DNA of 21,244 nt, from positions 1 to 21,244 of the IMG/VR virus record IMGVR_UViG_3300044843_000463, one strand, 5' to 3'. Under the pieces are notes generated by a model that saw only the letters and a list, made by a program, of their open reading frames with translations, had not been told where the DNA came from and made no database searches. The position numbers and the translations under genes were made by a program. This DNA is from a virus. Position 1 is the stretch's first letter; the number at the start of each line of letters is the position of its first letter. This document shows positions 2,575 to 18,289 of the stretch, piece after piece.

Positions 2575-2576
2575 TG

Positions 2577-3095
2577 TCAGCTCTCCTGGTACACCGACAC
2601 GAACATTTTGCCGCGCTTCAGGCGGGGCATGATGTGATCGCGCAGATCAGCGTTATGGCAGCGGATGCAGCCATGCGTCGGCAGCAGGGCCTGACGAGGC
2701 TGCCAGCAGCCGGGCCAGCCCAGCCCCGACCCGCCGCCATGGATAGCGATGCCAGCACGCCCGTAGCGGCGCTCCTGCGCTTCCAGCTCGATCAGATCCA
2801 GCGTGTACCAGCCATAAGGCATCAGCTCTGGTTGGCGGCCGGGGGCATCACCCAGGCGGTCGTAATCACGCCACACCGAACCCACCCGGTAGAGGCCAGG
2901 CGGTGTGTCGGTGTTGGGCTCACCCCATTGGTTGTCACGTCCCTGCCCACGGGCCAATGCCGTGAGCTTGAACAGTTGGGTGCCTTCGAAACTCCAACCG
3001 GTCAGCGTTTCGCTCTGATCGTTGACGACCAGATGGGTGTCACCCAGCTGGAACCCCCAGTCCTGCGGTTTGGTCTTCGGGCCGATGAGTGTCAT
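2577..3095 (-). CDS. L,D-transpeptidase (YkuD-fold) domain protein, candidate lysis enzyme
   Basis: A 172-residue protein whose C-terminal half carries the YkuD signature: a first histidine in AIHGGG (H119) and, 22 residues on, THGCIRCHNADL with H141, the nucleophile C143, R145 and N148. The family's consensus is a distant His followed by [S/T]HGCxR..N. Cellular members make 3-3 cross-links in peptidoglycan or attach proteins to it through an acyl-enzyme on the cysteine. There is no signal peptide or membrane segment, so a holin or another route would be needed to reach the wall. It lies between a beta-rich structural gene and terS in the region where T7-like phages keep lysis genes. No amidase or spanin is visible in the window. 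It may act as an endolysin or wall remodeller, or be virion-borne; the sequence does not decide. The enzyme-family call is strong, the role is inferred. Confidence 0.85.
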   Translation of the reverse strand: MTLIGPKTKPQDWGFQLGDTHLVVNDQSETLTGWSFEGTQLFKLTALARGQGRDNQWGEPNTDTPPGLYRVGSVWRDYDRLGDAPGRQPELMPYGWYTLDLIELEAQERRYGRAGIAIHGGGSGLGWPGCWQPRQALLPTHGCIRCHNADLRDHIMPRLKRGKMFVSVYQES

Positions 3096-3100
3096 GACGA

Positions 3101-3910
3101 TCAGGCAAAGGCGATGAACCCAGACACGTCGTTGGCAGCCAGGCCGGTGGCCGTGTTGTCGGTCAGACCCTTGGCTGAGGTGACGCTGTAGGTGATCGCT
3201 GTGGCAAAGCCCAGGCCGCCATCCAGCACCCGAGAAATAGCCCCGCCAGCAGGGATGTCAACCTCAAACGCTGCAGCTGTGGTGCCAAGTGTTGGCGCCG
3301 TGGCGTTGAAGATCTTGACCGAGCGCAGTGCTGCCCCACTGTTCTGCAGGTGGAAGCCGAGCAGGCGACCGGCAGAGGCCTTCACGGTTGCCACCGCTGG
3401 CGTTGCCGGGCTCATGACGCTCACGAATGAGGCTGCACCGGTGGCGTTGGCCCGGTACTGAACGCCGACATCACCGATCATGTTGGTGCTGGCGCCCGCA
3501 GTGACAGGCTGCGTGGCCAGCCACATCTCCTGGCGATCGTCGAACTGGATGACCGCAAACGAGGTGGTGCCGGCTGTGGTGGCAGTGCTGAGGCGCAGCC
3601 GCAGGAAACGCGCAACCACTGGCATCACCCACAATCCAGCTGCACTGATCGTGGCTGCGGTGGCCCCAAGCGGTGTGAGCAGAGTGCCCGGCTGCCAGTT
3701 CACGTTGTCGTTGGACCACTCCGGTGTCACCACACCGGTGGTGCCCATCGCCACGCACTGGATGCTGACCGACCGATAGAAGGTGCAGTCCAGGGGCATC
3801 AGGATCGTGTTGATCGGGATGACGCCGGCCACGCTGTAGGAAGTCAGCCGGGCTTCCAGCGGCAGGCGCTGCGTGAGGCCCGGGGTTTGGATGGTGGGTG
3901 TTTGAGTCAT
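3101..3910 (-). CDS. Two-domain beta-rich phage protein, probably virion- or tail-associated
   Basis: A 269-residue protein whose ATG overlaps the upstream stop (ATGA at 3907-3910). It has no signal peptide, few charged residues and many Ala, Thr, Val and Gly residues, typical of beta-sandwich virion proteins. The N-terminal part (about 35-130) has a discoidin-like run: SVSIQCVAMGTTGVVTPEWS, NDNVNWQPGT and ARFLRLRLSTATTAG, resembling phage modules that compare a measured signal with trailing strands. The C-terminal part (about 148-269) starts YRANATGAASFVSV, continues AGRLLGFHLQN and LRSVKIFN, and ends VAANDVSGFIAFA. I have seen this kind of module in phages and prophages as small proteins of unknown function. 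Decoration or fiber-accessory protein is the best guess, not proven. Confidence 0.75.
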   Translation of the reverse strand: MTQTPTIQTPGLTQRLPLEARLTSYSVAGVIPINTILMPLDCTFYRSVSIQCVAMGTTGVVTPEWSNDNVNWQPGTLLTPLGATAATISAAGLWVMPVVARFLRLRLSTATTAGTTSFAVIQFDDRQEMWLATQPVTAGASTNMIGDVGVQYRANATGAASFVSVMSPATPAVATVKASAGRLLGFHLQNSGAALRSVKIFNATAPTLGTTAAAFEVDIPAGGAISRVLDGGLGFATAITYSVTSAKGLTDNTATGLAANDVSGFIAFA

Positions 3911-4098
3911 CGTTTGACGTTGGGGGAATTGAAGATGCCGGCCATCAGCTCGATGGCGCGGTAGAGCTTGACGACCAGTCGCCGGTAGGTGCCCAGCGCC
4001 TCGTTGTCCTTGGGTGTGGGGGTGATGTTCACCACCACCACGGCAACGCCATGAATGGCGATGGCCAGATTCACGTAGTCGGCCAGGTGCTTGGTCAC
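3907..4098 (-). CDS. Small single-pass membrane protein, holin candidate
   Basis: A 63-residue protein starting with GTG at 4098, overlapping the stop of the upstream small gene (GTGA). GGAGAG (complement at 4105-4110) gives a good ribosome-binding site. A hydrophobic segment at about residues 8-24 (YVNLAIAIHGVAVVVVN) is followed by TPTPKDNE and an amphipathic helix with RRLVVKLYRAIELMAGIF. Short phage proteins with a membrane segment followed by a VNxTPTPKD motif are familiar to me from several tailed phages but have no established function. Its neighbours are another small membrane protein and, one gene on, the YkuD-type enzyme, so a lysis role is plausible. Confidence 0.7.
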   Translation of the reverse strand: MTKHLADYVNLAIAIHGVAVVVVNITPTPKDNEALGTYRRLVVKLYRAIELMAGIFNSPNVKR

Positions 4099-4274
4099 AG
4101 CTTGCTCTCCACGTTGCGAAGGCGGTCTTCGTGGTCCTTGAGCATCACCTGGACGCCTTCGAGGATCGTGGTGGTGCGGGACTCAAACCGCCCGAGGCCA
4201 TTGGCGATCTTCCAGAGCGCCATGACGCCGGAAGCTCCCAGGCTCACCAATGCGATCACTGAAGCTGGGTCCAC
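4095..4274 (-). CDS. Small membrane protein with C-terminal coiled coil, holin or spanin-like candidate
   Basis: A 59-residue frame from GTG (4272-4274) to TGA (4095-4097), translated by hand. It has a hydrophobic stretch at residues 5-22 (SVIALVSLGASGVMALWK), then a charged helical half with heptad-like spacing ending VMLKDHEDRLRNVESKL. The end overlaps the next gene by 4 bases (GTGA), which supports its reality. No ribosome-binding site is visible before the GTG. No ATG or GTG exists further upstream in the frame, which is open back to the stop codon of the fiber gene. Its place right after the fiber matches the T7 class II holin gp17.5. Holin is the favoured reading; an inner-membrane spanin-like partner is an alternative. 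Confidence 0.68.
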   Translation of the reverse strand: MDPASVIALVSLGASGVMALWKIANGLGRFESRTTTILEGVQVMLKDHEDRLRNVESKL

Positions 4275-4355
4275 GCTGGCAAGAGGACTGCACCCATGCA
4301 GGGTAGCGGGTTGGCAAGCAATGGCCAGCTGGGTCGCGTGTGCGCGGTTACCGGT
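4275..4355 (-). other. Intergenic gap between fiber and small membrane protein genes
   Basis: Eighty-one bases separate the fiber stop from the GTG of the 59-residue gene, the only sizeable gap in the minus-strand unit. It contains a small inverted repeat, CTGCA-CCCA-TGCAG at 4288-4301. I see no promoter consensus, terminator U-tract or ribosome-binding site. The gap has no stop codon in the frame shared by its two flanking genes. Confidence 0.5.
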
Positions 4356-6623
4356 TCAGTCCAATGATTTCAGATGCTGAGATTTCAGCCCATCTATTTC
4401 TGCTGATAGCTGTTGGACTGCCTTGATCAGCGGTGCAATCAGCTCCTCGTAGCCAATAGAGAGAACGTCTTCGCCACCTTTGAGGCTGTGGTCTTGATAG
4501 CCGCCAAAATCGACCCCGGCCGCATCACATGCTGCTTTCACCTCCTGAGCGATCAGACCGTGATGAAAACGTGAACGCTTCTTGGAGCCATCGTGCTGAA
4601 GGTTGTCAAGGGCATTTGCTTTGCGCCACTCTTGCAGAGCTTGGCTATGAGCAACACGCTCTTCTTTCGTCGCATCATCTGCCGGCGGTTCAGGGGGTGT
4701 TGAACGATAGTCGTCCCGCAAGTCCCAGCGGAAATCGACCGGGCGCAGAGCGTTGATGAAATCGAGGCCAAGTGCCGTGTCTTGAATGTCTGTCTTATCT
4801 CTGGCGTCTGAACGGTTTTGAACGGTGCCGTAGACGTAGGTGGTCGTGCTGGCGTTGCCTAGCTGAATCTGGTTGCTTCCTGTAACGGTCGCCTGATAGC
4901 CGAACATCGACGTGTTGGTATAGGCAGCGCCGCCGACTGTTCCAGTTCCAACGGCAGTGTTGTAATCGCCAGTCGTGACTGCGCTGAGCGACTGCTCGCC
5001 AATAGCAGTGTTTCCAGCACCAGTTGTATTCAACTGTGCAGCAAACCGACCAATGAAAACGTTGTTGAAGCCAGTGCTTAGGACGCTTCCCGAGCTGGCG
5101 CCAATCGAGACGTTTTGATAGCCGGTGGTAATGTCGCCTGATGCGGTATTGCCAACGGCAACGTTGTTGCTTCCGGTGATAGCAGTGCCAGACCCAACCA
5201 TGGCATCGTTGCCAATGGCGGTGTTGCCGCTGCCGGTGGTGATCCCGCTGCCGGCTCGCCTGCCAACAGCGACCGCGGATGCGCCCGTCGTCGCCGACCC
5301 AAGGGCTGCTGAACCAATAGCGATGTTGTAGAGACCGGCAGAGGATGGTGCCGACAGCGCCTGGTGACCGATGGCAACACTGTCGTTGCCGGTGTGCTGC
5401 TGGCCGGCCTGCGTGCCGATTGCAATGGTCCGGTTGACTCCGGTAGAAACGCCAATCGCCCGATCGCCAATGGCAACATTGTCGTCTCCAGTCGTGAGCG
5501 ATGTAAGTGCTCCGCTTCCAACGGCAGTGTTGTCGCTGCCAGTTGAGTATTGGAGAGCCTGAGCGCCGATCGCGGTGTTGTAGTTACCCGTGACGTTTGT
5601 ATAAAGGGCAAACGGCCCTATTGCCGTATTGTAAAAACCGGTGGTGTTTGAGTAGAGGGCCTGCGCTCCGATGGCGGTTTGGCGGCGTCCCGTTGTATTT
5701 GACGTGAGCGCATAATTGCCAAACGCAGTGTTGAAGTTGCCTGATGCCCATGTCAGCGTTGAAGAGCTGTGCTGCTTGGGAATGTAAGTGTTAGCCGCAA
5801 GTGCCCCGTAGCCGTAGGCCTCGTTAGCTGGTTGATCGTCAGTGCTGGCGGGTGCAAGGGTCAGCAGGCCGTTGCGAACCCCCCATCCAGCCGGAATTGT
5901 CGTGACCCGATAGCTAGCCCCTGCTAAGTCAATGGATGTATTGGGAAATGCGGTTCTAGCAAAACTGATAGCAGTTGTATCGTTGGTGCTGTTGTCTCCA
6001 GCACCCCCAAAGTCCTTAACTGATACTACGTCCTTAAGTTTGGCATCAACGGTTCTGCTGGTTGCGCCAGTGCCGCTTTGAGTAAACGCCAGCTTGCTGG
6101 CCGCGATGCCAGCGGAAGCGTTCACATCATCGTCAACAATCGCACCGTTCTGAATCTTGCTGCTGGTAACCGCACCGTCCTGGATCTTGATTGTGGTAAC
6201 AGCATCGCTTGACAGCTTGTTGGCTGTGATCGACCCGTCTGCGACGTTTGTGTTGGGGTTGATCGACAGCGCTTCGATGTAGTCCTTGTGTTCCTGGATG
6301 GCGTAGAAGTTCTGCAGGTCAGCGGTATCCAGCGCATCAGCGTTCAAGGCGCTGCCATCGTTCCAATCCACCAAGCGGCTGGTGGTTGGTGTTTCGCGGC
6401 GGATGCTCAGCGTTTGGCCAACAACCGGCGCGGCGCTGAGCTGCACCTGTGTAGCACTCGTCCAGGTGTAGTTGACGCCATCGGCCAGCAGCTGCGTGTA
6501 CCCGCCGCTCTGCAAGCTCAACCCGTAGTACAGCTTGACGTGTGCCCGCAGCAGGTACGGGAACGGCACTGTGAACGTGACCGTTGACCCGTTGCCCGGG
6601 TACTGCACGTAGGAGAAGGGCAC
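4356..6623 (-). CDS. Tail fiber: T7 gp17-like N-terminus, YadA-like repeats, S74 self-cleaving chaperone
   Basis: A 755-residue receptor-binding fiber. Residues 1-120 match the T7 gp17 tail-attachment domain: FTVPFPYLLRAHVKLYYG, a SIRRETPTTSRLVDWNDGS run, and DTADLQNFYAIQE. Residues 128-180 are a linker of GSITANKLSSDAV-like repeats, and about 200-245 is a VKDFGGAGDNSTNDTTAI segment like the start of pectate-lyase-type spikes. Residues 298-578 hold about 17 copies of a NTAIGxxAL..(N)TTG unit, as in YadA-type trimeric heads. The C-terminus from S605 (RSDARDK, S605/K610 spaced like the S74 Ser-Lys dyad) through HHGLIAQEV and a final coiled coil is an intramolecular chaperone expected to cut itself off after trimer folding. 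The start is GTG at 6623, without a clear ribosome-binding site. Base composition in the distal two thirds is noticeably less GC-rich than in neighbouring genes, suggesting module exchange. Confidence 0.93.
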   Translation of the reverse strand: MPFSYVQYPGNGSTVTFTVPFPYLLRAHVKLYYGLSLQSGGYTQLLADGVNYTWTSATQVQLSAAPVVGQTLSIRRETPTTSRLVDWNDGSALNADALDTADLQNFYAIQEHKDYIEALSINPNTNVADGSITANKLSSDAVTTIKIQDGAVTSSKIQNGAIVDDDVNASAGIAASKLAFTQSGTGATSRTVDAKLKDVVSVKDFGGAGDNSTNDTTAISFARTAFPNTSIDLAGASYRVTTIPAGWGVRNGLLTLAPASTDDQPANEAYGYGALAANTYIPKQHSSSTLTWASGNFNTAFGNYALTSNTTGRRQTAIGAQALYSNTTGFYNTAIGPFALYTNVTGNYNTAIGAQALQYSTGSDNTAVGSGALTSLTTGDDNVAIGDRAIGVSTGVNRTIAIGTQAGQQHTGNDSVAIGHQALSAPSSAGLYNIAIGSAALGSATTGASAVAVGRRAGSGITTGSGNTAIGNDAMVGSGTAITGSNNVAVGNTASGDITTGYQNVSIGASSGSVLSTGFNNVFIGRFAAQLNTTGAGNTAIGEQSLSAVTTGDYNTAVGTGTVGGAAYTNTSMFGYQATVTGSNQIQLGNASTTTYVYGTVQNRSDARDKTDIQDTALGLDFINALRPVDFRWDLRDDYRSTPPEPPADDATKEERVAHSQALQEWRKANALDNLQHDGSKKRSRFHHGLIAQEVKAACDAAGVDFGGYQDHSLKGGEDVLSIGYEELIAPLIKAVQQLSAEIDGLKSQHLKSLD
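4890..5732 (-). repeat. Degenerate in-frame repeats encoding about 17 NTAIGxxAL units
   Basis: The fiber gene carries back-to-back units of roughly 45 bases. The encoded cores are NTAFGNYAL, QTAIGAQAL, NTAIGPFAL, NTAIGAQAL, NTAVGSGAL, NVAIGDRAI, TIAIGTQAG, SVAIGHQAL, NIAIGSAAL, AVAVGRRAG, NTAIGNDAM, NVAVGNTAS, NVSIGASSG, NVFIGRFAA, NTAIGEQSL, NTAVGTGTV and a last divergent copy. DNA identity between units is only moderate, so they are old or selected at the protein level. Such units form left-handed trimeric beta-rolls in YadA-like adhesins. Confidence 0.85.
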
Positions 6624-6628
6624 GGCTA

Positions 6629-6648
6629 GGTCTGCAGGGCTGTAGACC
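6629..6648 (-). repeat. Imperfect 20-base palindrome between ejection-protein stop and fiber start
   Basis: GGTCTGCAG at 6629-6637 faces CTGTAGACC at 6640-6648 across two G residues, with one mismatched pair. It lies in the 24-base gap between the TAG of the 1165-residue gene (whose last base it includes) and the GTG of the fiber. In RNA it could form a 9-bp stem with a mismatch. Whether it acts as a processing site, a weak attenuator or chance is not known. Confidence 0.4.
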
Positions 6649-9600
6649 TATTGTGCCGAAACGCCCAGCCCCTTCAAGAACTTGCCGGTTTCCCTCAGTT
6701 CTTCCACCGCCTGCTGGTTCTGAATGATCGTCATTTTGGTCTTGGCCTCGCTCCATTCCTTGGCGGGCTGGCTGGTGCCGGCTGCAGCGCGACGTTCCAG
6801 TTCATCCTGCGTCAGCAGGTCGTAGTAGTCGGTGACACCGCGGATCAGCTTCTGGGCAATCTTTTTTCGGCGCAGTGCCGGCGGCAGGCCGCCAGGAGGG
6901 GCGGATGACAGCTTGTCGTCGTCTTCCAGCCGTTGATACCAAGGGCTGCTGAACAGGGCATAGAAGGCCTCCTTCTTGGTGCGGCCATTGGTGACACGAT
7001 CAAGGATTTGCGTGAGAGGCAGGCTGGCGCCGCCATCTTTGCGAATCCTGATCCCGTCACTGGTGACCGTCTCAATGGGCATCGAGAGCCGCGCGTCAAC
7101 GCTTTTTTCTGCAAGGCCCATGCGAGCTGATGGTGGCAGATCGGCGGGCGCCTTGATCTTGCCGTGGATGTTGTTGTACTCCTGCTGGAGGTCATCTGAC
7201 ATGGCGATGCCATCCAGCTTCCGCTCAAGCAGCGGCTTTGGCGGGTCAAGCATGTCCTGCGTGTCGAGCTCGCTGTAGACCACATCGTTGACCTTCCCCT
7301 TAGGCCAGACGGCCGGGAAGAACATCGGGAACGCGCGGGACAGGTTGATGCCAAGGACGTGCCCTCGCGGTGTGCCGAGGTGATCGGCCTCCTTACGCTT
7401 TGCCCCCAGGGCGCCCGCTGCCAATGGAATGGTGTCCATCAGGAAGTTGCGCAGGAACTGCTCTGCCTTCGCTGTCGCGTCGTCCAGTCCCAGCAGGTAT
7501 TCCTGGTTGGCAGTGCTCGGTTCGTCGCGGTAGAAGCTCTGGCGGTCCATGCCGAGAGCACGCTCAAGATTTCGCTCTGCACCGATGAATGGGATCTGAC
7601 CAGCACCCATGAAGCCGACGAACTGGCTCAGCTTCTCTCCGGCTTTCTCCGTGCCAGACAACATGGCTTCAAGCAGCAAATGCAGCTGCTGCACGCCGGC
7701 CTGGCGCGTGATGTGGCTGGTCAGCACCTTCATGGTTGTCATCGCCAGCTCGTTGCCGTCGTAGTCGTTGGTCAGGGCCGATGTCGCCGCGTCCTTCACG
7801 TCCTTCCAGAGGAACAGGACATTGAGGACCGGGAAGCCGCCGAGCTTCATGCCGAACAGCGTGTTGCGTCGGTCAGGGTCAGGATCGGTCCCGCCGCCAA
7901 CCTGCCCGGCCGCGTCAAGCACGCCGAACGCTGCCAGCAGGGCCCCGCTCATCACCCACCCGGCCTTGACTCGAGCGACCAGTTCCGGCGATGCGTCCTT
8001 GCCGGCGTTGATCATCTTGATCGTGTCGATCACGCCGAACGTGGCCAGGCGGTGATCAAACAGCAGGCCCATGAACGGTGAACGCCAGTACGGCATCACG
8101 TAGCGATCCACCATCCAGTTCTGGCGGAGGCCCATCATTCCCCGATCCAGCGCCTCACCGGGGTTGCCGGTTGGTGCGTCCTGGAAGCGCATCTCGGAGG
8201 AGTACCGCAGCGCTTCCACCGATTCCGGTGTGGCCATGGTCGGGGCGCCGGCCATGTTGCGCTCGGCAAGCATCGCCCCGATCTCGTCGTCAGTGAAATC
8301 GCTGCCCTTGAGGCCGTTCTGCTTGCGGAAGGCCTTGATGTCGCTTTCGCTTGGCGTCGCCTGGTAGATCGCTTCATCAAGCTGGCCTTGCACCCATTCC
8401 GCCCTGGTCCGGTCGTCAAACAGCCCGAGCTGATTGCCCTCCATGCGCGCCTTGACCTCGAGGTCGGCTTTCAGCTTGAAGAGGTAGTGGTACTTGCCAA
8501 ACACCTCATCCACGCCAGCCATGGCCCGCAGGGCGGGTTTCCATGGGGTGTAGAGGTCAATGTCCTTCGCGCTGATGCGTTGGATCCCCTCGCCTCTGGA
8601 AAGACCAAGGGCAGCCACCGATGCCTCCAGCCGGTTCATGCCCGTGTAGAACGTGCCGCCTGGCTTGGTGAGGAACAGGATCCGCGCCGCGGCCTGCAGC
8701 TTGTTGGTGAAGATCCCCATGTTGTGCGGGTTGCCCAGCCGCATGGCCCAGTTAGAGCCAGGCCGGTAGGGCATGTCGAGGATGCCCTGCATGTCCGCGA
8801 TCTCCTGTTCATTGGTGAGCAGCCGCTTGCCGTAGGTGTCGAGGTTGCCGCTGTAGTGGCTCACGCCGTTCTGGAACACCCGCTGCAGGTCACGGCTCCA
8901 AGTGGAGCGCAGAGTGGTCCAGGCGTAGTTGTGGGCCTCGCTGGTGACCTTCAGCGCTTCCATCAGTGGGGCGCGGGTGAGTTGCGTGCCGATCGGCGTT
9001 AGGCGGGCGCCGTTGTAGAAGGTCTGCTGCACCGGCCCAAAAATGGCCATCACGCCGTTGCTGCCGAGGTTCAGGTACTGCGTGTTGAGGTTGCCAAGCT
9101 GGCTGTCCTTCACCAGCGCCGTGGCCATCCGCATGTGGGTGTTGAACCAATCCTTGTCCAGTCGAGACTTCGGATCCAACCCATCAATCTTGGTGGTGTC
9201 GATCAGGAAGTCCAGCTGTTTCGAGTCGCCATTGTCGATCGCATCAACGACGCGAGCGAAGTGTTCGTCGGCGCCGAGATCCTTGCCGGTCATGCCAATG
9301 GCGTCTGTCACGCCTTGCTCGAACTCATCGCCAAGGTCCAGGCGGAACTGTTCAAGATCGAGAATGTTCTCCTGCTGGCTGCGCAGTGCTTGTGCGTGCC
9401 TTCTGGTGACGAGGTTGTTGTGGCGCTCCATCACCAATGCCAGCTTGTACTGGCGGAAGGCATCTTGCATCAGCTCCGGCGGTGGCTTGGCACCGGGAAT
9501 GGCTTTCGCGTAATCCCGAATCTGCTCAAGGGAGTCGAGGTAGACCCGTTTGGTGCGATCGGCCCAGAATCGCAGCCACAGCTTGTTCTCCACGGCGTTG

Positions 9601-10145
9601 ATTGCCGGGGCAGTCTTGACCGCTGCTCGAGCCAGCAGGTCAGCATCACTGGCGCCCAGATCCCGGTAGTAGTCGCTCACCAGCTCGATCAGCTTCTCCT
9701 TGCCATAGCGGCGGGTGACGAAGGCGAAATCGTCTGGCGCGATCCGTTCGTGGGTGATGCCAAGCGCTTCCGCAAAGCGCGCGTAGTCCTCGCGGGTGGA
9801 GAGGTCAACCTCGCGGATCAGGCGGTCGTAGTTCTGGAAGCGACCTTCGCTGCCGGGCGGTCTGGTGCGTTGATCCAGGCCGCGGCCAACAAAGTCATCC
9901 ACCTGTTTCGATGACATGGTGGCGGCCAGCTGCTGATAGCCGCGCTGGACATCCGCCGTGTCCATTTCGCGGGGTGTGCCATCCCGGCCGGGGATGATCA
10001 CGCTGTCGCCAGGAGGTGCCGAGACGCGGGTCCATGCAGCGTTGAGCTGCCGGTCGATGCCTTCCAGCTCCTGCTGCAGTTCGCGCTTGCGCTGCTGCAG
10101 TTCCTGGTCGCGTTGGAAAGCGTCGTCGCAGTTGTTGGCGGTCAT
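6648..10145 (-). CDS. Giant internal/ejection protein (1165 residues), polyvalent-protein C-terminal type
   Basis: A predicted virion core protein in the place of T7 gp16. ATG at 10145 has AGGAGGG (complement 10155-10161) 9 bases upstream and follows the previous stop by 2 bases. An N-terminal coiled coil (about 10-40, QELQQRKRELQQELEGIDRQ) leads into a long helical body. Residues about 345-400 (SNGVMAIFGPVQQTFYNGAR) and about 680-695 (RYVMPYWRSPFMG) resemble the PFxRTP-type region that I associate with the C-terminal parts of large polyvalent proteins. A likely membrane-inserting segment lies at about 728-745 (AGWVMSGALLAAFGVLDAAG). No catalytic motif is evident. By position and length it probably helps form the ejection conduit through the cell envelope. 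Family assignment is by resemblance only; that it is a real structural-scale protein is certain. Confidence 0.8.
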   Translation of the reverse strand: MTANNCDDAFQRDQELQQRKRELQQELEGIDRQLNAAWTRVSAPPGDSVIIPGRDGTPREMDTADVQRGYQQLAATMSSKQVDDFVGRGLDQRTRPPGSEGRFQNYDRLIREVDLSTREDYARFAEALGITHERIAPDDFAFVTRRYGKEKLIELVSDYYRDLGASDADLLARAAVKTAPAINAVENKLWLRFWADRTKRVYLDSLEQIRDYAKAIPGAKPPPELMQDAFRQYKLALVMERHNNLVTRRHAQALRSQQENILDLEQFRLDLGDEFEQGVTDAIGMTGKDLGADEHFARVVDAIDNGDSKQLDFLIDTTKIDGLDPKSRLDKDWFNTHMRMATALVKDSQLGNLNTQYLNLGSNGVMAIFGPVQQTFYNGARLTPIGTQLTRAPLMEALKVTSEAHNYAWTTLRSTWSRDLQRVFQNGVSHYSGNLDTYGKRLLTNEQEIADMQGILDMPYRPGSNWAMRLGNPHNMGIFTNKLQAAARILFLTKPGGTFYTGMNRLEASVAALGLSRGEGIQRISAKDIDLYTPWKPALRAMAGVDEVFGKYHYLFKLKADLEVKARMEGNQLGLFDDRTRAEWVQGQLDEAIYQATPSESDIKAFRKQNGLKGSDFTDDEIGAMLAERNMAGAPTMATPESVEALRYSSEMRFQDAPTGNPGEALDRGMMGLRQNWMVDRYVMPYWRSPFMGLLFDHRLATFGVIDTIKMINAGKDASPELVARVKAGWVMSGALLAAFGVLDAAGQVGGGTDPDPDRRNTLFGMKLGGFPVLNVLFLWKDVKDAATSALTNDYDGNELAMTTMKVLTSHITRQAGVQQLHLLLEAMLSGTEKAGEKLSQFVGFMGAGQIPFIGAERNLERALGMDRQSFYRDEPSTANQEYLLGLDDATAKAEQFLRNFLMDTIPLAAGALGAKRKEADHLGTPRGHVLGINLSRAFPMFFPAVWPKGKVNDVVYSELDTQDMLDPPKPLLERKLDGIAMSDDLQQEYNNIHGKIKAPADLPPSARMGLAEKSVDARLSMPIETVTSDGIRIRKDGGASLPLTQILDRVTNGRTKKEAFYALFSSPWYQRLEDDDKLSSAPPGGLPPALRRKKIAQKLIRGVTDYYDLLTQDELERRAAAGTSQPAKEWSEAKTKMTIIQNQQAVEELRETGKFLKGLGVSAQ

Positions 10146-10147
10146 GG

Positions 10148-13100
10148 TCAGCAGCCCTCCTGTTCGGCCTTGCGGCGGTTGTCGATGATCTGTTGGTCGA
10201 GGTCGTCAATCTGGCGTTGAAGGCGCTGTTGACTGACCTTGGTGGGCGGGGCGTCAAAAATCTGCTGCGAGCGAAGCTCGGATAGCGACATCTCCAACGC
10301 TTTTGGAAGTGACGACACAGGCTTCCCGTCCCAAGAGAAGTCTTCCCAGATGCCAACCTTGAAAGAGCGGTGTTGCCCGTAGACGTTGCTGCTGCCATCG
10401 CGCCACACCTTATACGCAGGTTCGGCGTTCCTCATTTGGCCGCTCGCTGCTTTTTGGAAAACAGTTGAGATTGACTCAAATCCTCTGCCTTGGAAAAGGT
10501 TGACTGTTTTTTCGATAAAGTCATAAGCTTTATTAAGCGCACCAGCAATCTGAGTGATCGCGCCACGAACCCGGGGCGGAATGGCCTTACCGGAATCGTT
10601 GGCCCTGAAGAAGTCATCGAGGATCGCGCTGACTGGATCTATGTTACGGCTGCGGGCTACAAACACTTTTGCGGCCGCTTCGGTCAGCAGCTCGTCGTAG
10701 GCAATGGTGCTGCGCTCTGCCCCCATTTCATCCATTGCCAGTGCAGCCTTGAACCGAGCCATTGGGGTATTAAGAACAGCTAGATCCTTGTCCGGCATCG
10801 CCATCCGCACAATTCTGTGAAACGCTTCATGGAACCCATTGTGCAGGAGATCGCTAAACGTCATCCGTATTGGTATTTCTTCCATGATTGGCGAAAGATT
10901 TTGCCAAATGGTCATCGTGTCCTTCCACTGTTCGTAGGCTCCAGCAATGTCGGCAAGCTGCGATCCGTCTCCGCCCCATTGCTCTGACTGAGGCGCGATT
11001 TTGTACGTGTCAAGCACCCTGATGCGCACTTCATCGCCGACAACTTTTCGCCATGCGGAGATCAGCTCGGGGATCCGATCTTTTGGATAGAGCTCGGCAC
11101 GCATCCCTGCCGCCAGGGCCCGAAGGTCATCGGCGCGGCTGGGCTGACTGCCGCCACGTTGCGCCAAGCGCTGCGCACTGCCGCTCCCGCGCTCCCGCCA
11201 CGGTTGCGCCGGCAGTTCAATCTGCCCGGGGTTGCCCTTGGCTGCCTGTTTCAGCGCCGCCCGCACCGTCTGCCCATGGGCCACCACCTCGTCAAGATTG
11301 AGCCCTGCTTCCTTGACCACCTGGCGGAACTTGGCGGCCGATTTGCTGGGCTTGATCGCGTCGTTGGCCAGCACGTAGGCAGCACGGTCCAGGTCGGACT
11401 GGAAGGTGATGGTGTTGCGTCCGTAGCGAGGTGATGCCTGGCGCAGATCCTGCGGCAGGAGTAGCTCTGGCTGCGACGCGGACAACGCCAAGCGGACGGG
11501 CGCCGGGCGGACGGGCGCCGGGGCCAGCTCATCCAGTCCCTGGCGGATGTTGGCCATCGCCTGTCCTGTCCGCCGATACAGGCGGGCGTCGGACTGGGCC
11601 ATCTCCCGCATCTGGCCTTCGATTGCATCAGCAAGCGGCGTTGCGCTCCGTGGCGCCGCTGGGGTGATCGCCTCGCCCAGATCAGCAACAGCCTCCAAGC
11701 GATTGCCGTCGGCATCCAACTTGTAGATGTCAACCCTGTTGGCGGGGTCCCAGTAAATCCGCACCTGATGCAGGTTCTTGCCCTTGCCTGCCAACCTGCC
11801 GCCCTGGTGGGTGAAGCCGCCGTAGCCGTCCTTCTCCAGCTCCAGCTTGAAGCTCTCCCACGTCCCCTGCAGCTCATAGGAGGGGATCACAAACTCCCGC
11901 GAATACCCCCGCATTTCATCGAACACCTCGGCCAGGGATGGAGTGCCCTCAAACTCGTTGATCGCGGTTTCAATCAGATCCAGCATGTTGTCGTAGCCAG
12001 CTGAGGCACGGAGCTTGTCCAGCACGGCTGGCGTTGCTGGCTTGTCCAGATCAAAGAACTTGACCGGCTTCTTCTCGACCACCTCGTAGGTGACGCCATT
12101 CACCTCGACGCCCCTGGTCTTGTTTTTCTTCTGGTACGTGCCAGCAATGCCGAGGTTGTCTGTGGAGTACAGGCCATTCCCGTAGATGTTCATGCCATCG
12201 TTGTAAAACTCTCCGCCTTCCTCCAACTTGAACTCACTGGCAGCGCCATGGAAGAACCGTGGCTCCTCCCAGTCATCCAGCATCCCGTTGGCCTTCTTCT
12301 CCTCGAAGGTCAGCAGCTCGTAGTCGTTGGCGTCCTTCACCGCCTTTTCCTGCAGTTCCTGCAGTGCTGCATCAGCCCGGGCGTGCTCGAGCGCCAGTCG
12401 CGTCTCATCCGCCAAGGCCTGGGCCGCCCTGCTGCCGGGGGTGATCGGTTCGTTCGGATCAAGCTCATCCAGTCGCACCTGGGCAGGGGCCGGCAGCTCA
12501 GGGATCGGAGCATTGGGCGGTCGCACCTCGCCGCCAGCGATTGCTTCCTGCAGCAGCCGGGCTTCAGCTGCGTCGCGTTGCTCGGCCGTGAGCTCTACCG
12601 GCTGCGACGTCTCATCAGCCTGACGCCCGGCTGCAGCGAACATGTCCTCTTGCACTACGTCGGTGGCGGGTGCCACCTCCTTGCCCATCGCTTCTTGGAT
12701 GGAAGCCGCCAGTCGGTTTTTGATGCCCTTGGCCACCTGGGCCGCCTGCTCGCCCGCCAGCACCCTCTGCGTGCCCTCGTTGAGCAGATCGCCCACCGGG
12801 CCGGTCTGGTACTTGAGATCATCAAAGATCGCCAGCGCGCGACTGGCCTCGCCGCTGATGTCCTTGGCGGCGGTGGCATCCACTTGGCCCACCCGCTCGA
12901 TCTGACCGGCTTGGCGGCCAACGGTGCCAAACAGCTTTTTCTCCTTGCTGAGCAGCAGCCGGACGGCTCCAGCCACCTCGGCCTTGGCCAACATGCCGGC
13001 GTTGAAGTTCTGCGCCCATTCAGTTCCCGACAGGAGGTCGGGCTGATCAGCGGAAGACGATGCCGGCGAGCTCTTGGACATCGCCAGCATTTCCCGCAGC

Positions 13101-15403
13101 GTGCCCTCTTTCACGTTGTCTGGGCCCTGCTGCACCAAGTAGCGGTAGGCCGACCGCATCGTTTCCTCGTCCACCCCTGATTCGCCGATGATCACTGCAC
13201 GGCGCAGCGGGATCTGCTCATTCACCGCTGCGGTGAACACGTCCTCGGGCAACCGGCCAACGGCAATGCCGTCTTTCCAGAAGCCGCTGGCGCCTGGCTT
13301 TCCCAGTGCCTTCAGCTGCGCCGGATCCTTGATGTCGTACTCGCGGGCGAGCTTGGCCGCATCAAACACCGTGCCCTTGCCGTCGCTCACATTGGAGATG
13401 GCGCCTTGCAGCCGGGCCTCAGCTGCCGTGGGTGCATCCAGGTATTCCACCCGCATCGACGGAATCCCCAGGCGCTTCGCTGCAGCCAGCCGGTTGTGAC
13501 CGTTGACGACGTAGACCATGCCCGGGTTGCCAATCTCGCCGCCAGCATCACGCCACACCTGGATGATGTTTTCGGCATTTGGATCCCAGCGTTCAACACC
13601 TTCCAGCGAGTTGCCGATCTGTTCGCCCGCCTCGTTGACGCCGCCCTTGTACTGGAACACCAGCGGGGCGGCTTGCACCTCGCCCGTGGGCAGCATCTGC
13701 GCGCCCATCATCCGATTCACGATTGGTACTCGCCCTTCGGCTGCCATGGCGCCAAACGTGTCGAGCATGTCGGCCTTGCTCAGTTGGCTCGGGTCGTCCA
13801 CTCCGGTCAGCGCCTGGGCTTTCTGCCACAGCTGCGGATTGGCCTCTGCATCGAACAGTGGCCGAAGCTCGTAATCCTCGCGGCCACCCAGCTTGCGCAT
13901 GACCGATGGCAGGTAGTCATCCGCCAGGCGATCGGCGGGGGCCATCACCATGCCGGCATCCATCGGGGGCGGCGCCTGCACCTGCGCCCTGGCCTCGAGC
14001 GTCTGGTTGACCCGCTCCACCACTGGCGTGCCTGGGCTGTTCAGCACGATCTGCAGTTCGCTGTCGCTCAGCTCCTCGATGCCTTTGCCCAGCGCGGTGC
14101 TCTCCGGCAGCTCAGGGTCGTAATCCCATGGGCGCTCTTGACGTGGTTCGTAGATGGCGCCCATGTCGGCGCCGGGATTGGTTGGATCCTGGAGCTCTGC
14201 GCTCGGAATCGGTTTGGGCTCTGGCGGCGCCGCGTTCGTTGGCGCGGCGGCCGGCTCGGGTCGCGCCGCATTGCTGGGCATGCCAAGCCGCTGCTCCATC
14301 GCGGCATTGGCTTCCTGGAACGATGGCTCGCGTGGGGCCGGCGCCGGTGGCTCCATCGCCTGCGGCGTGAAATCCAGCCCATCCGCTTCATCCTTCTCGA
14401 GCAGGCCCATTGCTTCCTGCTTGGCGCGTTGCCTCGTCTCCTGCTGCACGGCGCGGGTGGCGCGGGTGTTGCGGCGGATGTTGCGGAAGGCTGCGGCGCC
14501 CAGTGAAACCGTGCCGCCAACCGCGGCGCCCAGCGCAACGCCGAACGCGGCATTTGGCACCAGTGATTGATTTGCGGCATCGAGCATGTCGGCCTTGCCG
14601 ACATCCACGGCGCCGGGAAGGTTGAAGCCCTTTTCAGCGGGCTGCATTTCGCCTGTCCATTCCCCGGCTGCGTTCACCACTCCCCTGGCAGGCCTTGTCG
14701 CACGGATGAACGGCACCCCCTTTGAGTCGCCGGGGTCAAATGTGAACTGGTTGATCAGATTGACGATGTTGCCGCCGGTGTTGTCGTCGAGGTATGTGCT
14801 CAGCGCTTCGTTGACAGCAAATGCGGCGCCACCGCGGACGGCTGCGCCAAGGGCAGTGGTCGCACGGGCCACGCCAAATCCAGGTGTCACCGGCGCCAGC
14901 ATCACGTTGAGAGCAAGCGATCGGCGGAACTGATCGCCGCTGCGCTCGTCTTGCGTCATCTGCGACGGGGGCTTGGCGCCCAGCGCGGTGTAGACGCGAT
15001 CCACCGTCTGATCAAGGTGCCCCCCGAAACGCCCAGAAGAAGCGTCAGCTTTCGGTCGGCCGCTGGCTCTTTGGGCATAGGAGTAGCCCACTCGCATGGC
15101 GTTGTCGCCAACGCCGGCAACGCCCAACCCGATCCCCTGCAGCGGGCTTGAAGCCACTGCGCGGGACAGTCCGCCGACGTACCGCTGCAATGGGTTGGCG
15201 GGGCGCGGCCGGTTGAACAGCTCGTAGCGGATGTCATTCGAGAGCTTCTCGAAGAAACCCTTGGGCTTCGGCTTCGGCTTGCTCCTTGACTTGGCGGCTG
15301 GCGGCTTGGCAGGTTGCTGCCGCACCGCCGGCACCAGATCGCTGCTCTGCTGCGCGCCGGTCAACACCAGCCGGCCATTCACGATCTTGTGTTCTTGTGG
15401 CAT
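10148..15403 (-). CDS. Polyvalent giant protein: ParB-like, ADP-ribosyltransferase-like and HExxH metallopeptidase-like domains
   Basis: A 1751-residue multi-enzyme protein inside the internal-virion-protein gene block. In order: a basic Pro/Lys N-terminus (30-50); Ala/Gly-rich possible membrane segments (about 165-205 and 280-305); a proline-rich linker (350-410); a ParB/sulfiredoxin-like domain (about 575-680) with VYVVNGHNRLAAAKRLG (N634-L639 core); helical linkers; an ADP-ribosyltransferase-like domain (about 1045-1225) with FFHGA (H1052), GNGLYSTDN (Y1079), YGGFTHQGG (to about 1200) and a closing VRIYWDPANRVDIY; and a zincin-like domain (about 1430-1640) with HEAFH (H1525, E1526, H1529) and a plausible third ligand E1571 or E1575 in DELLTEAAAK. 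A C-terminal coiled coil ends the protein. This mix defines phage polyvalent proteins, thought to enter the host with the DNA and counter defences. Exact targets are unknown. ATG 15403 is preceded by AGGAA. Confidence 0.88.
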   Translation of the reverse strand: MPQEHKIVNGRLVLTGAQQSSDLVPAVRQQPAKPPAAKSRSKPKPKPKGFFEKLSNDIRYELFNRPRPANPLQRYVGGLSRAVASSPLQGIGLGVAGVGDNAMRVGYSYAQRASGRPKADASSGRFGGHLDQTVDRVYTALGAKPPSQMTQDERSGDQFRRSLALNVMLAPVTPGFGVARATTALGAAVRGGAAFAVNEALSTYLDDNTGGNIVNLINQFTFDPGDSKGVPFIRATRPARGVVNAAGEWTGEMQPAEKGFNLPGAVDVGKADMLDAANQSLVPNAAFGVALGAAVGGTVSLGAAAFRNIRRNTRATRAVQQETRQRAKQEAMGLLEKDEADGLDFTPQAMEPPAPAPREPSFQEANAAMEQRLGMPSNAARPEPAAAPTNAAPPEPKPIPSAELQDPTNPGADMGAIYEPRQERPWDYDPELPESTALGKGIEELSDSELQIVLNSPGTPVVERVNQTLEARAQVQAPPPMDAGMVMAPADRLADDYLPSVMRKLGGREDYELRPLFDAEANPQLWQKAQALTGVDDPSQLSKADMLDTFGAMAAEGRVPIVNRMMGAQMLPTGEVQAAPLVFQYKGGVNEAGEQIGNSLEGVERWDPNAENIIQVWRDAGGEIGNPGMVYVVNGHNRLAAAKRLGIPSMRVEYLDAPTAAEARLQGAISNVSDGKGTVFDAAKLAREYDIKDPAQLKALGKPGASGFWKDGIAVGRLPEDVFTAAVNEQIPLRRAVIIGESGVDEETMRSAYRYLVQQGPDNVKEGTLREMLAMSKSSPASSSADQPDLLSGTEWAQNFNAGMLAKAEVAGAVRLLLSKEKKLFGTVGRQAGQIERVGQVDATAAKDISGEASRALAIFDDLKYQTGPVGDLLNEGTQRVLAGEQAAQVAKGIKNRLAASIQEAMGKEVAPATDVVQEDMFAAAGRQADETSQPVELTAEQRDAAEARLLQEAIAGGEVRPPNAPIPELPAPAQVRLDELDPNEPITPGSRAAQALADETRLALEHARADAALQELQEKAVKDANDYELLTFEEKKANGMLDDWEEPRFFHGAASEFKLEEGGEFYNDGMNIYGNGLYSTDNLGIAGTYQKKNKTRGVEVNGVTYEVVEKKPVKFFDLDKPATPAVLDKLRASAGYDNMLDLIETAINEFEGTPSLAEVFDEMRGYSREFVIPSYELQGTWESFKLELEKDGYGGFTHQGGRLAGKGKNLHQVRIYWDPANRVDIYKLDADGNRLEAVADLGEAITPAAPRSATPLADAIEGQMREMAQSDARLYRRTGQAMANIRQGLDELAPAPVRPAPVRLALSASQPELLLPQDLRQASPRYGRNTITFQSDLDRAAYVLANDAIKPSKSAAKFRQVVKEAGLNLDEVVAHGQTVRAALKQAAKGNPGQIELPAQPWRERGSGSAQRLAQRGGSQPSRADDLRALAAGMRAELYPKDRIPELISAWRKVVGDEVRIRVLDTYKIAPQSEQWGGDGSQLADIAGAYEQWKDTMTIWQNLSPIMEEIPIRMTFSDLLHNGFHEAFHRIVRMAMPDKDLAVLNTPMARFKAALAMDEMGAERSTIAYDELLTEAAAKVFVARSRNIDPVSAILDDFFRANDSGKAIPPRVRGAITQIAGALNKAYDFIEKTVNLFQGRGFESISTVFQKAASGQMRNAEPAYKVWRDGSSNVYGQHRSFKVGIWEDFSWDGKPVSSLPKALEMSLSELRSQQIFDAPPTKVSQQRLQRQIDDLDQQIIDNRRKAEQEGC
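10390..10960 (-). other. Lower-GC patch within the metallopeptidase-like domain
   Basis: By hand count, several 60-base lines here hold about 38 to 50 percent G+C (10501-10560 about 38, 10861-10920 about 40, 10441-10500 about 45) against 60 to 68 percent in most of the same gene. The patch covers the HExxH region and the helices after it. The reading frame is intact throughout. It suggests the domain was acquired from a less GC-rich source; individual lines inside it (10621-10680) are closer to normal, so the boundary is fuzzy. Confidence 0.45.
11492..11521 (-). repeat. Perfect 15-bp tandem duplication
   Basis: GCGGACGGGCGCCGG occurs twice in a row (11492-11506 and 11507-11521). On the coding strand it gives the duplicated APVRP-APVR linker between the ADP-ribosyltransferase-like and metallopeptidase-like domains of the 1751-residue protein. 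It keeps the frame and looks like a recent slippage duplication in a tolerant linker. Confidence 0.85.
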
Positions 15404-15406
15404 GGG

Positions 15407-18289
15407 TCAGGTTCCTGTGCGAAGAAATGCCGCCCTGGCGCGCTGCAGCACGGCGCGAGCGCTTTCACGCCCAATCGAGGCGCGGTTGCCGCCCTGGTTC
15501 GGGTAGGCCGTGCCGCCGCCGCGCGTGGCCACGGACGCCCACTCCAGTGCGATGTCGTCCAGCGCCGCGTTGATGTTGTTGTTCTTGCCGCGCAGGTATG
15601 CCGCCAACGCCGGCCGCTTGCTCCCGATCATCAGCTGCACGGCCAGCCGGTCCTGAACAGCCGGACTCATCACCGTGTCGTTGGAAACGCCGGCCTCCCG
15701 AGCAGCGAGCTCCAGCGTTCGTGGGATGAACTGGTATGCACCGAGAGCGTTGTACCCGCGTCGTTGATAGGCCTTCCACTGCGCCAGGGTCATGCGGCTC
15801 AGCCCTGGGATGCCGCCCGGCGTGTCACCAGCCATGCCACGGTTGGCCGAATCCCATCCGCCTTCGCCACTGCGCAACAGCGCCAGCACAGGCGCAAACG
15901 GGCGGACGTCGGTCACAGCCCTATCCATAAAAGGGCCTCCGCCATTCCGGCCGCCCCCTTCTCTCATGGCAACCATGGGCGCCGCCGTTGCTGCCGTGGT
16001 GCCCGTCAGCGCATTGAAGAACCAGCCCATGGTCGAGGCGATTGGGCTGGGCGGTGCCGCAGCAGCTCGCTCAGCGCCGATCACGCCTTGGGCATCACGA
16101 CTGCTGCGCAGCAGGCGTTTCCGCACATCAGGCGCGATCTTGTAGGTCGGGAAGTTCTCGGCTTCACGCAACAACCACTGGCCCACGTTGTTGCCGTAGC
16201 CCGCGTCGCGCGCGGCGCGAATCACTGCCGCGCTGGGCGCCTGACCGTTGTAGACCCTGGCAACCTCCTCCTGCACGCTCGGCAGCGCCAGCACTGGCTG
16301 ACCGCTCTGCAGTAGCTCCTTGCGTCTTGGCAGGTTGTCGAGCTGGCCCGATGGGTAAACCGTTGGCGCCGGTTTGGCGGGTGTGCCGGCGCCGCTGCCG
16401 CCGGTCCGTGGTGGCCGTGCCTTGCCACTCACGGAAGGCTGGTTGGTTTGGTCGGAGCCAGGGAACAGGCGATCGAAGTTTTCCTTGTCGTTCTTGCCGT
16501 ACTCCTCGAGGGCGCGACTGGCCACGCTTGTGATCTCAGGGACAGTCAGGCTCGCGCCCTTCTTTTTGGTGGCCTCTGCAATCCGGGCGTAGACGTGCGC
16601 CTGGTACGCCGACAGCTGCAACTGCGCTGAGCGGGCAATGTCGGCGTCGCCCCAGGCCAGCAGGCTGGTGATGTCTGAACCACGAAGCGATGCTTCCGTC
16701 ACGTCCGTGGGATAGGCCCACCGCAGGCGGCTCTTGATCGCCGCAGTGATCAGCGGGGTTACGAGATGGCCGGGCACATCGTCTTTCTCCTTCTCCTTGG
16801 AGCGGTAGATGTCGGCAAACCGCTGGCGCACCTGAGCCCGGTCTTGAGGAGCCACGTTGGTGATGTTTGCCTCAAGCTCTCGGGTGGCTGCTTCTGGATC
16901 CCACAAGGGGCCCACGCGCCCCTGCATGTCCATCAGCAGCGCATCCATGCCGGATCGGTCGTAACTGCGCCCTGCCACCGCATCGAGCGTGCTGCTCATG
17001 TTCTTGGTGGACTCCATCAGGCGGTTCAGCGGCACGCCCGCCCGCTGGTATTTCCTCACCAAATTGTTGATTGCCTGGCCGCGCTCCGGGCCGTCTGGCA
17101 TCCCCTGGGTGACAACAGCCAGCTCAGACTCGAAGGTCTGGACTCCTTGATCGGCCGCGCGCTGCTGCTGCTGCCATGTCGCCTGGGCAATCTTGTTGCC
17201 CTCCTCAAACATCTCAATGCCATAGAACTCACCAGCCAGCGCCCTGCGCCCGTTCTTGTCCGGCGGCCCAACCTCAGTGGACAGCAGGATCCGCTTGAGC
17301 TCAGGGTTGCCGCTGAGCTCTGCCATCTCTGCCAACCGGACAAACATCTGCCGCTTCAGGGCGCTCGGCTCGCCAGTGATGCCGGTTTCGTTTGCCAGAC
17401 GGTCACCCGTTTGGGCCGCCAGGATCTGGATGCCGCGCTCCCATGCCGCACGGTCCTTGCCAAGCTGCGCAACCCTCTTGATCTGCCGGCCGCTGACGGG
17501 ATCGAACTCAGTCCATTCGATTTCGCCTGAAGTGCGCGCCCGCTCGTAAATCGCGCCCACCTCTACTGACGCCTGCCGCCAAGAGGTTTCCTTGAGGTGC
17601 TTGACCCGATCATCAACATGCCGCTCGTAGAGCTTCATGCCGGCCTGGCCGATCTGCGGCAGGACGTGCTCAATGAAGCCAGGCGACCCTTCGTTCAGCC
17701 CAAAACGCTGCACGACATCCTGAACCGCTTGCGCCTCGATCCGCTTCAACTCCGGCGAGCCGATGTCCAGCTCGGCCACGTTGGGGGTGTTGCGATAGCG
17801 GTCCATCACGGCCGGCAGGATCCTCTGGCCTGCGACGCGCGCCAGTGAGTTTTGACGACCGCCTTCTCGGAACGGGTTGACCCGATCCATCATCATTGCC
17901 GCGATCGGATCGGCCTTGTCGAGCTTGCGGTTTTCGGCGGCGTACTGGGCCTGTGATTGCTGCATCTGCTGGTTGGCCAGCACTGCTGCACGCATGGCCT
18001 CGCTGCGGCCCTTCTCGTACTCAGAGCTGGCGTAGAGCTCAAGCCCAGCGCCGCCCAGCTGCACCAGATCACGACTGAATGGCGCCAGGGCCTGTGCCAG
18101 CTCTTGCCACTGGTTGACGCCACCGACATTGCCGCCGCTGCCCTGGCCGATTGTGCGGATGCCGCCAGGGTTGGGCATCATCTGCAGCTGGGCTGGCGCG
18201 GCCACGTTCTGCTGGGCAGGACGAATAAACGCATCAACCGGGCGTGCTGCCGGGATGATCTGGTTCTGGCCGAGGTCGCTGCGTGTCAT
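15407..18289 (-). CDS. Internal virion protein (960 residues) with C-terminal lambda-lysozyme-like (GH104-like) domain
   Basis: Start ATG at 18289 overlaps the upstream stop (ATGA), with AAAGGCG just before it. The first 780 or so residues are Gln/Arg-rich and helical, like internal core proteins that line the ejection tunnel (T7 gp15/gp16). Residues about 797-955 form a peptidoglycan-hydrolase domain: LALLRSGEGGWDSANRG with likely catalytic E809, NALGAYQFIPRTLELA near 850 and LEWASVATRGGG near 915. These match the SEGT, GAGRYQ and IWASLP blocks of phage lambda R, a lytic transglycosylase of family GH104. T7 gp16 instead carries a transglycosylase domain at its N-terminus, so here the wall-piercing domain is at the other end and of another subtype. 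The expected role is local wall opening at DNA entry. Domain call strong, core-protein role inferred from gene order. Confidence 0.88.
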   Translation of the reverse strand: MTRSDLGQNQIIPAARPVDAFIRPAQQNVAAPAQLQMMPNPGGIRTIGQGSGGNVGGVNQWQELAQALAPFSRDLVQLGGAGLELYASSEYEKGRSEAMRAAVLANQQMQQSQAQYAAENRKLDKADPIAAMMMDRVNPFREGGRQNSLARVAGQRILPAVMDRYRNTPNVAELDIGSPELKRIEAQAVQDVVQRFGLNEGSPGFIEHVLPQIGQAGMKLYERHVDDRVKHLKETSWRQASVEVGAIYERARTSGEIEWTEFDPVSGRQIKRVAQLGKDRAAWERGIQILAAQTGDRLANETGITGEPSALKRQMFVRLAEMAELSGNPELKRILLSTEVGPPDKNGRRALAGEFYGIEMFEEGNKIAQATWQQQQRAADQGVQTFESELAVVTQGMPDGPERGQAINNLVRKYQRAGVPLNRLMESTKNMSSTLDAVAGRSYDRSGMDALLMDMQGRVGPLWDPEAATRELEANITNVAPQDRAQVRQRFADIYRSKEKEKDDVPGHLVTPLITAAIKSRLRWAYPTDVTEASLRGSDITSLLAWGDADIARSAQLQLSAYQAHVYARIAEATKKKGASLTVPEITSVASRALEEYGKNDKENFDRLFPGSDQTNQPSVSGKARPPRTGGSGAGTPAKPAPTVYPSGQLDNLPRRKELLQSGQPVLALPSVQEEVARVYNGQAPSAAVIRAARDAGYGNNVGQWLLREAENFPTYKIAPDVRKRLLRSSRDAQGVIGAERAAAAPPSPIASTMGWFFNALTGTTAATAAPMVAMREGGGRNGGGPFMDRAVTDVRPFAPVLALLRSGEGGWDSANRGMAGDTPGGIPGLSRMTLAQWKAYQRRGYNALGAYQFIPRTLELAAREAGVSNDTVMSPAVQDRLAVQLMIGSKRPALAAYLRGKNNNINAALDDIALEWASVATRGGGTAYPNQGGNRASIGRESARAVLQRARAAFLRTGT

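What the first reader, a model, noticed from the sequence alone, without database searches (positions are those of the whole stretch)
10148..15403. Virion-block polyvalent protein combining ParB-like, ADP-ribosyltransferase-like and HExxH modules in a T7-type phage
Seen directly: ordered motifs NGHNRL (634-639), HGA/GLYST/THQGG (1052-1200) and HEAFH (1525-1529) in one intact 1751-residue frame, placed where T7 has gp15/gp16. Established: polyvalent proteins of phages and conjugative elements mix such domains and are thought to be delivered with the DNA to blunt host defences. Inference: this T7-like phage ejects a multi-enzyme effector as part of its internal core, which canonical T7 does not do. 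The three putative activities in one ejected protein would be an unusual first-minute takeover device.
Basis: partly seen in the sequence, partly recalled or inferred. Interest (0 to 1): 0.78.

Follow-up and report, generated by a model that had tools for sequence, protein, structure and literature searches.

The report
Phage core protein with swappable enzymes
This T7-type phage encodes a very large protein, probably carried inside the virus particle and shot into the host with the DNA, that strings a DNA-binding part together with two enzyme-like parts; close relatives keep the frame of the protein but swap the enzyme parts.

Summary
In detail: one intact 1751-residue frame (10148-15403, minus) carries the motifs at the stated residues. 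Profiles and predicted structures support the three modules. ParB plus its HTH lies at 540-909. An ADP-ribosyltransferase (ART) fold lies at 1033-1241; its best PDB match is the cyanophage A4 pre-ejectosome protein, then an anti-CRISPR protein. A gluzincin lies at 1413-1719, with H, E, H and a downstream E invariant in 33 sequences.

The gene fills a fixed slot between two core-type genes in about 50 T7-type contigs. The solved A4 protein (A-4L ORF27) fills the same slot, so packaging in the virion core is likely but not tested here.

In a 98%-identical sibling the ART is replaced by unrelated sequence and the zincin is absent, at sharp breakpoints. A 42-nt repeat marks one border.

Polyvalent proteins are a known kind. 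A T7-type ejectosome protein with exchangeable cargo is a new variant. Host targets, enzyme activity and any anti-defence role are inference.

The parts
10148..15403 (-). Polyvalent core protein, 1751 aa (P0001)
   Evidence: Intact ORF; same slot in about 50 contigs
13904..15403 (-). N-terminal frame, residues 1-500: basic up to about 330, then an acidic Pro/Ala-rich linker
   Evidence: Residues 101-350 and 426-500 are matched in 75-97% of 39 orthologues, less at the very N-terminus; isoelectric points
14631..14749 (-). 119-nt stretch that L003 replaces by 8 nt
   Evidence: Breakpoints
12677..13786 (-). ParB-like domain plus ParB-type HTH, residues 540-909; motif NGHNRL 634-639
   Evidence: 40 of 40 orthologues, conserved NGHN and Arg, ParB HTH structures at E 0.037, phrog_21
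11662..12293 (-). ART cassette (residues about 1038-1248; H1052, Y1079, H1199, H1212)
   Evidence: Pfam DUF3990 and ART-PolyVal in relatives, AF2 model, Foldseek, cassette borders
11621..11661 (-). Single copy of the linker (AAPRSATPLADAI, 41 nt) that is a perfect 42-nt direct repeat around a cassette in L003
11200..11661 (-). Middle frame domain of unknown fold, residues about 1249-1402
   Evidence: 97.8% identical to L003 between two cassettes; found in many relatives
10256..11199 (-). Zincin cassette, absent from L003 (20 nt there)
   Evidence: H, E, H, E invariant in 33 sequences; fold matches
10817..10831 (-). HEAFH, residues 1525-1529; likely third ligand E1571 at 10691-10693
10148..10255 (-). 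C-terminal tail with embedded Shine-Dalgarno site (AGGAGG, 10156-10161) for the next gene
15407..18289 (-). Upstream core-type neighbour, 960 aa, with C-terminal lysozyme/endolysin-like domain
   Evidence: PHROGs phrog_30077 and phrog_90 endolysin at 774-955
6648..10145 (-). Downstream core-type neighbour, 1165 aa, in the gp16 position
   Evidence: Synteny; no PDB hit

Best explanation
The 1751-aa protein is a core (pre-ejectosome) protein of a T7-type phage that doubles as a carrier of effector enzymes. A constant frame (N-terminal region, ParB-like DNA-binding part, short C-terminal tail) places it in the core, and variable places hold cargo: here an ART-fold enzyme and a gluzincin protease. 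On infection it is ejected with the other core proteins. The ParB part then acts on the entering DNA, the ART modifies a host protein, and the zincin cuts the protein into working pieces or cuts host proteins. Cargo is exchanged between phages by recombination. Shown: module identities, the conserved slot, exchange of cargo between near-identical phages. Supported through a same-slot solved protein: location in the virion core. Inferred: ejection, enzymatic activity, host targets, benefit against host defence.
For: Slot conserved next to core-type genes in phages with T7-type RNA polymerase. Same-slot A-4L ORF27 is chain B of the A4 pre-ejectosome and the best fold match of the ART; ART profile against ORF27 P 4e-4 with motifs aligned. 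ART family, zincin residues and fold, ParB. Cargo exchange at sharp breakpoints, higher unaligned share than the neighbours, changing order.
Against: No virion proteomics for this phage or any close relative. The zincin fold has no PDB match below E 0.1. The ART third catalytic position is not acidic, so it may be inactive or act differently. ParB support from solved structures is marginal (E 0.037). A-4L ORF27 is not alike by sequence outside the ART. The window and L003 are metagenome assemblies.
Confidence: 0.6

Rival explanations
1. The ART-fold module is an NAD-consuming enzyme (RES-like) and not a protein-modifying transferase; it would deplete host NAD or interfere with NAD-based defence. 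The rest of the model stands.
For: RES toxins rank directly after the anti-CRISPR protein in the fold search; the position before VRIYW is Q, E or S, not a conserved acid.
Against: Profile hits of the family are to DUF3990, ART-PolyVal and PARP, not to RES.
Confidence: 0.25
2. The domains are only structural: ParB, ART and zincin folds are used as building blocks of the core or for maturation inside the producing cell (for example zincin self-cleavage before packaging), with no effector role in the new host.
For: P1 DdrB is processed before packaging (PMC5512222); the ART active site is non-standard.
Against: ART and zincin are replaced or lost between 98%-identical phages, which essential core parts would not tolerate; the zincin metal ligands are invariant.
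Confidence: 0.2
3. The protein is made late and acts only in the producing cell; it is not packaged.
For: No direct packaging evidence for this group.
Against: Position inside the core gene block and the solved same-slot protein in a pre-ejectosome.
Confidence: 0.12
4. The cassette differences between the window and L003 are assembly chimaeras of metagenome reads.
For: Both are metagenome contigs; a 42-nt repeat can mislead an assembler.
Against: L002, a separate contig, carries the window's arrangement at 99.9% identity over 10 kb; cassette presence varies over dozens of other contigs; reading frames stay open.
Confidence: 0.05

Closest known systems
Polyvalent proteins of phages and conjugative elements (Iyer et al. 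2017, PMC5512222)
   Same: Several conflict-type domains in one large phage protein; ParB, ART and zincin are named hub domains there
   Different: Here in a T7-type core slot with a constant ParB frame and cargo exchanged between near-identical phages; the ART does not show the published H-Y-D triad
Anabaena phage A-4L ORF27 / cyanophage A4 pre-ejectosome chain 9k3a_B
   Same: Same gene slot, similar length (1717 aa), ART-like region
   Different: No HExxH; no detectable sequence similarity to the ParB and zincin profiles
Nohivirus S31C1 1484-aa protein (BAQ94395)
   Same: Same slot, ParB and zincin; UniProt calls it a large polyvalent protein associated domain protein
   Different: No ART found; 29% identity
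Prochlorococcus phage P-SCSP1a g21 (2571 aa)
   Same: Same position in the virion block, ParB region and HExxH with downstream Glu; its authors guessed an internal virion protein from size and position (PMC9860041)
   Different: Much longer; ART not supported
T4 Alt and the anti-CRISPR protein 6kyf
   Same: ART activity or fold in phage proteins that act on the host; Alt is packaged and injected; 6kyf is the second fold match
   Different: Stand-alone proteins; Alt belongs to the R-S-E clade
P1 DdrB
   Same: ParB-like domain with C-terminal zincin, packaged in the head (PMC5512222)
   Different: Not a T7-type core protein; DdrB-ParB Pfam model not matched here

Membership tests
Polyvalent proteins | Two or more conflict-type domains in one polypeptide | tested here: met
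   ParB, ART and zincin in one frame
Polyvalent proteins | Encoded by a phage or conjugative element, phage type near late structural genes | tested here: met
   Virion block
Polyvalent proteins | Delivered into the host at infection | not testable with these tools
   Only inferred from the same-slot A4 protein
ART-PolyVal (Tox-ART-HYD2 clade) | ART fold and family profile | tested here: met
   Foldseek; ART-PolyVal in 8 of 28 relatives, DUF3990 in 21 of 28; the window protein itself is below the cut-off
ART-PolyVal (Tox-ART-HYD2 clade) | Active site H (strand 1), Y (strand 2), D (strand 5) | tested here: not met
   H1052 and Y1079 present; no conserved D or E in the last conserved strand, invariant H1199 and H1212 instead
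Zincin metallopeptidases (gluzincin type) | HExxH plus downstream Glu | tested here: met
   Invariant in 33 sequences
Zincin metallopeptidases (gluzincin type) | Zincin fold | tested here: inconclusive
   PDB top ranks are zinc peptidases but E 0.14 or worse; IrrE and SprT-like proteins in the viral library
DdrB-like ParB | ParB core with conserved Arg | tested here: met
   NGHN and R638 invariant or at 90% or more in 53 sequences
DdrB-like ParB | Match to a ParB or DdrB-ParB family profile | tested here: inconclusive
   HTH_ParB in 1 of 53; ParB structures at E 0.037
T7 gp15/gp16 internal core proteins | Sequence homology to T7 gp15 or gp16 | tested here: not met
   P0001 finds no PDB chain; profiles of the neighbours find no T7 core structure
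T7 gp15/gp16 internal core proteins | Position between gp14 and gp17 genes | tested here: met

The most novel reading that the evidence does not exclude
A large, almost uncultured group of T7-type phages has built an exchangeable set of effector enzymes into the ejectosome: a fixed ParB frame with places where whole enzyme domains are swapped between near-identical phages at repeated linker sequences, so that the first proteins entering the cell are re-chosen host by host. The ART among them works with a non-standard active site.
Probability: 0.35. Interest if true: 0.78.

Novelty: new variant of a known kind. Interest (0 to 1): 0.62.

Why it matters
T7-type core proteins are usually discussed as a DNA channel with a wall-cutting activity. 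If one core protein carries exchangeable enzymes, the ejectosome also delivers effectors before any phage gene is expressed. The sibling pair (window and L003) gives a natural comparison: nearly the same virion with different cargo and a different fibre tip, so what the cargo does for particular hosts becomes testable.

Tried and rejected
1) A profile of the 1165-aa neighbour seemed to match the P-SCSP1u 'fibre gp28' structure at 3e-96. This was an artefact: I had put the P-SCSP1a gene after the 2571-aa gene, which is evidently its fibre, into the alignment. Rebuilt without it, there is no hit.
2) I suspected that the P-SCSP1 2571-aa protein is a fusion with the 1165-aa protein; hhalign P 0.083, not significant.
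3) I suspected an ART in P-SCSP1; not supported.
4) The near-universal C-terminal Gly-Cys looked like an interaction motif; its codons carry the Shine-Dalgarno site of the next gene, which explains most of it.
5) Repeated linkers as the general exchange mechanism: only 6 of 40 genes have exact repeats of 18 nt or more (0 of 40 in each neighbour), so it is seen in L003 and not shown for the group.
6) Weak PAS_4, Big_15 and TPR Pfam hits are below cut-off and were ignored.
7) The ART family has no tblastn relative among 50,697 phage records.

Full report
What is there. The window is an IMG/VR virus record. Its minus strand carries a T7-type virion block: nozzle gp12 (Pfam 7e-138), gp13-like, gp14-like, a 960-aa protein with a C-terminal lysozyme/endolysin-like domain, the 1751-aa protein of the finding, an 1165-aa protein, and a fibre with the T7 gp17 N-terminus; a T7-type terminase lies on the plus strand. 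The 1751-aa frame is intact and all three motif groups are at the stated residues. HExxH arises in 0.4% of shuffles of the protein.

The slot. A ParB-based scan of IMG/VR found 275 relatives, of which 80 were kept. About 50 of the loci carry the ORF directly beside homologues of the 960- and 1165-aa genes, with gaps mostly of 3-66 nt. Nine of eleven tested contigs encode a T7-type RNA polymerase. So the gene is a regular member of the virion block of a large group of phages with almost no cultured representative: in 50,697 phage records only S31C1, the P-SCSP1 group and Ruegeria phage 45A6 match.

ParB. The region 540-909 is found in 40 of 40 complete gene sets, with the NGHN core invariant or nearly so and the Arg at 90% or more in 53 sequences. 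A profile finds three ParB structures over the HTH at E 0.037. PHROGs files the region under phrog_21.

ART. Single-sequence Pfam finds nothing, but 21 of 28 relatives hit DUF3990 (best 1e-6), 8 hit ART-PolyVal (2.7e-4) and 4 hit PARP. The AF2 model (pLDDT 81.8) matches the cyanophage A4 pre-ejectosome chain B (E 1.1e-4, TM 0.58), an anti-CRISPR protein (7e-4), and more weakly RES toxins, a rifampin ART and PARPs. H1052 is in strand 1 and Y1079 in strand 2, but the third, usually acidic, position is not conserved; instead H1199 and H1212 are invariant.

Zincin. H1525, E1526, H1529 and E1571 are invariant in 33 sequences down to 13% identity. The model's best PDB matches are zinc peptidases, without significant E-values. 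The viral library adds the S31C1 slot protein (3e-10) and, more weakly, IrrE- and SprT-like proteins.

Is it in the virion? The A4 chain 9k3a_B is identical to ORF27 of Anabaena phage A-4L. ORF27 lies between ORF28, an internal protein with M23 and transglycosylase-like domains that is also in the A4 structures, and ORF26; then come a hypothetical ORF25 and the fibre. That is the same slot. A comparison of the ART profile with ORF27 1410-1610 gives P 4e-4 with the HG and G-x-G-x-Y motifs aligned. The only match of the ParB profile upstream of it puts YAVVDNHAIYEAAK on YVVNGHNRLAAAK, not significant. I know the A4 paper (Hou et al. 2025) only from a reference list; it is not held, so I do not know whether its authors saw the ART. 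Location in the core is therefore likely by position and fold, and untested for this phage.

Cargo exchange. Contig L003 is 97.6-98.6% identical to the window in the matching pieces of the shared block. Within this gene the matching pieces end sharply: gene nt 1-654, 774-3110, 3743-4204 and 5149-5256 match at 97.8-99.4%, whereas nt 3111-3742 (the ART) face 956 nt of unrelated sequence and nt 4205-5148 (the zincin) face 20 nt. In L003 a perfect 42-nt repeat (AAPRSATPLADAI) flanks one cassette; the window holds one copy, exactly at the end of its ART cassette. A relative of that L003 cassette stands before ParB in L036. The other divergent place of the shared block is the fibre beyond residue 215.

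Across pairs with 80-95% identity of the 1165-aa protein, the unaligned share is 0.11 in this gene against 0.03 (960 aa) and 0.007 (1165 aa); the pairs are not independent. Architectures among 40 sets: ParB alone 11, ParB-zincin 24, ParB-ART 1, ParB-ART-zincin 3 (one with an insertion in the ART), ParB-zincin-ART 1. The ParB part itself has probably been exchanged: at the same backbone distance (65-70% in the 1165-aa protein) its identity to the window is 82-88% in L010, L011 and L123 but 63-68% in L013, L015, L016 and L083.

How it probably works (inference). The frame and the ParB part hold the protein in the core on the DNA; on ejection it enters the cell; the zincin may separate the modules, as proposed for polyvalent proteins (PMC5512222); the ART modifies a host target, as T4 Alt does, or consumes NAD. 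The swapping of ART and zincin suggests selection by differing hosts or defences. Activity, target and benefit are not shown by anything here.

Comparison and novelty. The protein fits the polyvalent class of Iyer et al. 2017, and the S31C1 relative already bears the 'large polyvalent protein associated domain' name in UniProt. It is a new variant: a T7-type ejectosome protein with a constant frame and exchangeable enzyme cargo, and an ART that does not meet the published H-Y-D triad of polyvalent ARTs.

Noticed in passing
window 10148-10161: The conserved C-terminal EGC codons contain the Shine-Dalgarno site of the downstream gene: AGGAGG in 22 of 39 relatives, a shorter form in 38 of 39.
   Followed up: yes
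window 4356-6623 and L003 18070-18978: The tail fibre of the sibling L003 departs from the window's beyond residue 215, so the two phages differ in fibre tip and in cargo of the 1751-aa protein.
   Followed up: partly
window 13786-12677 (ParB region): PHROGs names this region 'portal protein' (phrog_21), probably a mis-annotation of a ParB-like region.
   Followed up: no
L123: A phage block with 88% identical ParB and a 65% identical zincin part lies in a contig of a Sphingomonadaceae MAG: a weak hint at the host.
   Followed up: partly
960-aa gene, window 15407-18289 and relatives: The C-terminal part (wall-cutting domain) of this neighbour also fails to align in several close pairs, so it may be exchanged too.
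   Followed up: no
L055, L097, L112-L116: The ART of L055 and L116 has a long insertion between the GFYxTD part and the second half; the others of this group align in the same way but were not inspected.
   Followed up: partly
L090, L091, L095-L111: The same ART family occurs in other large proteins of 1.6-3.0 kaa without a detected ParB region, some beside T7-type tail genes.
   Followed up: no
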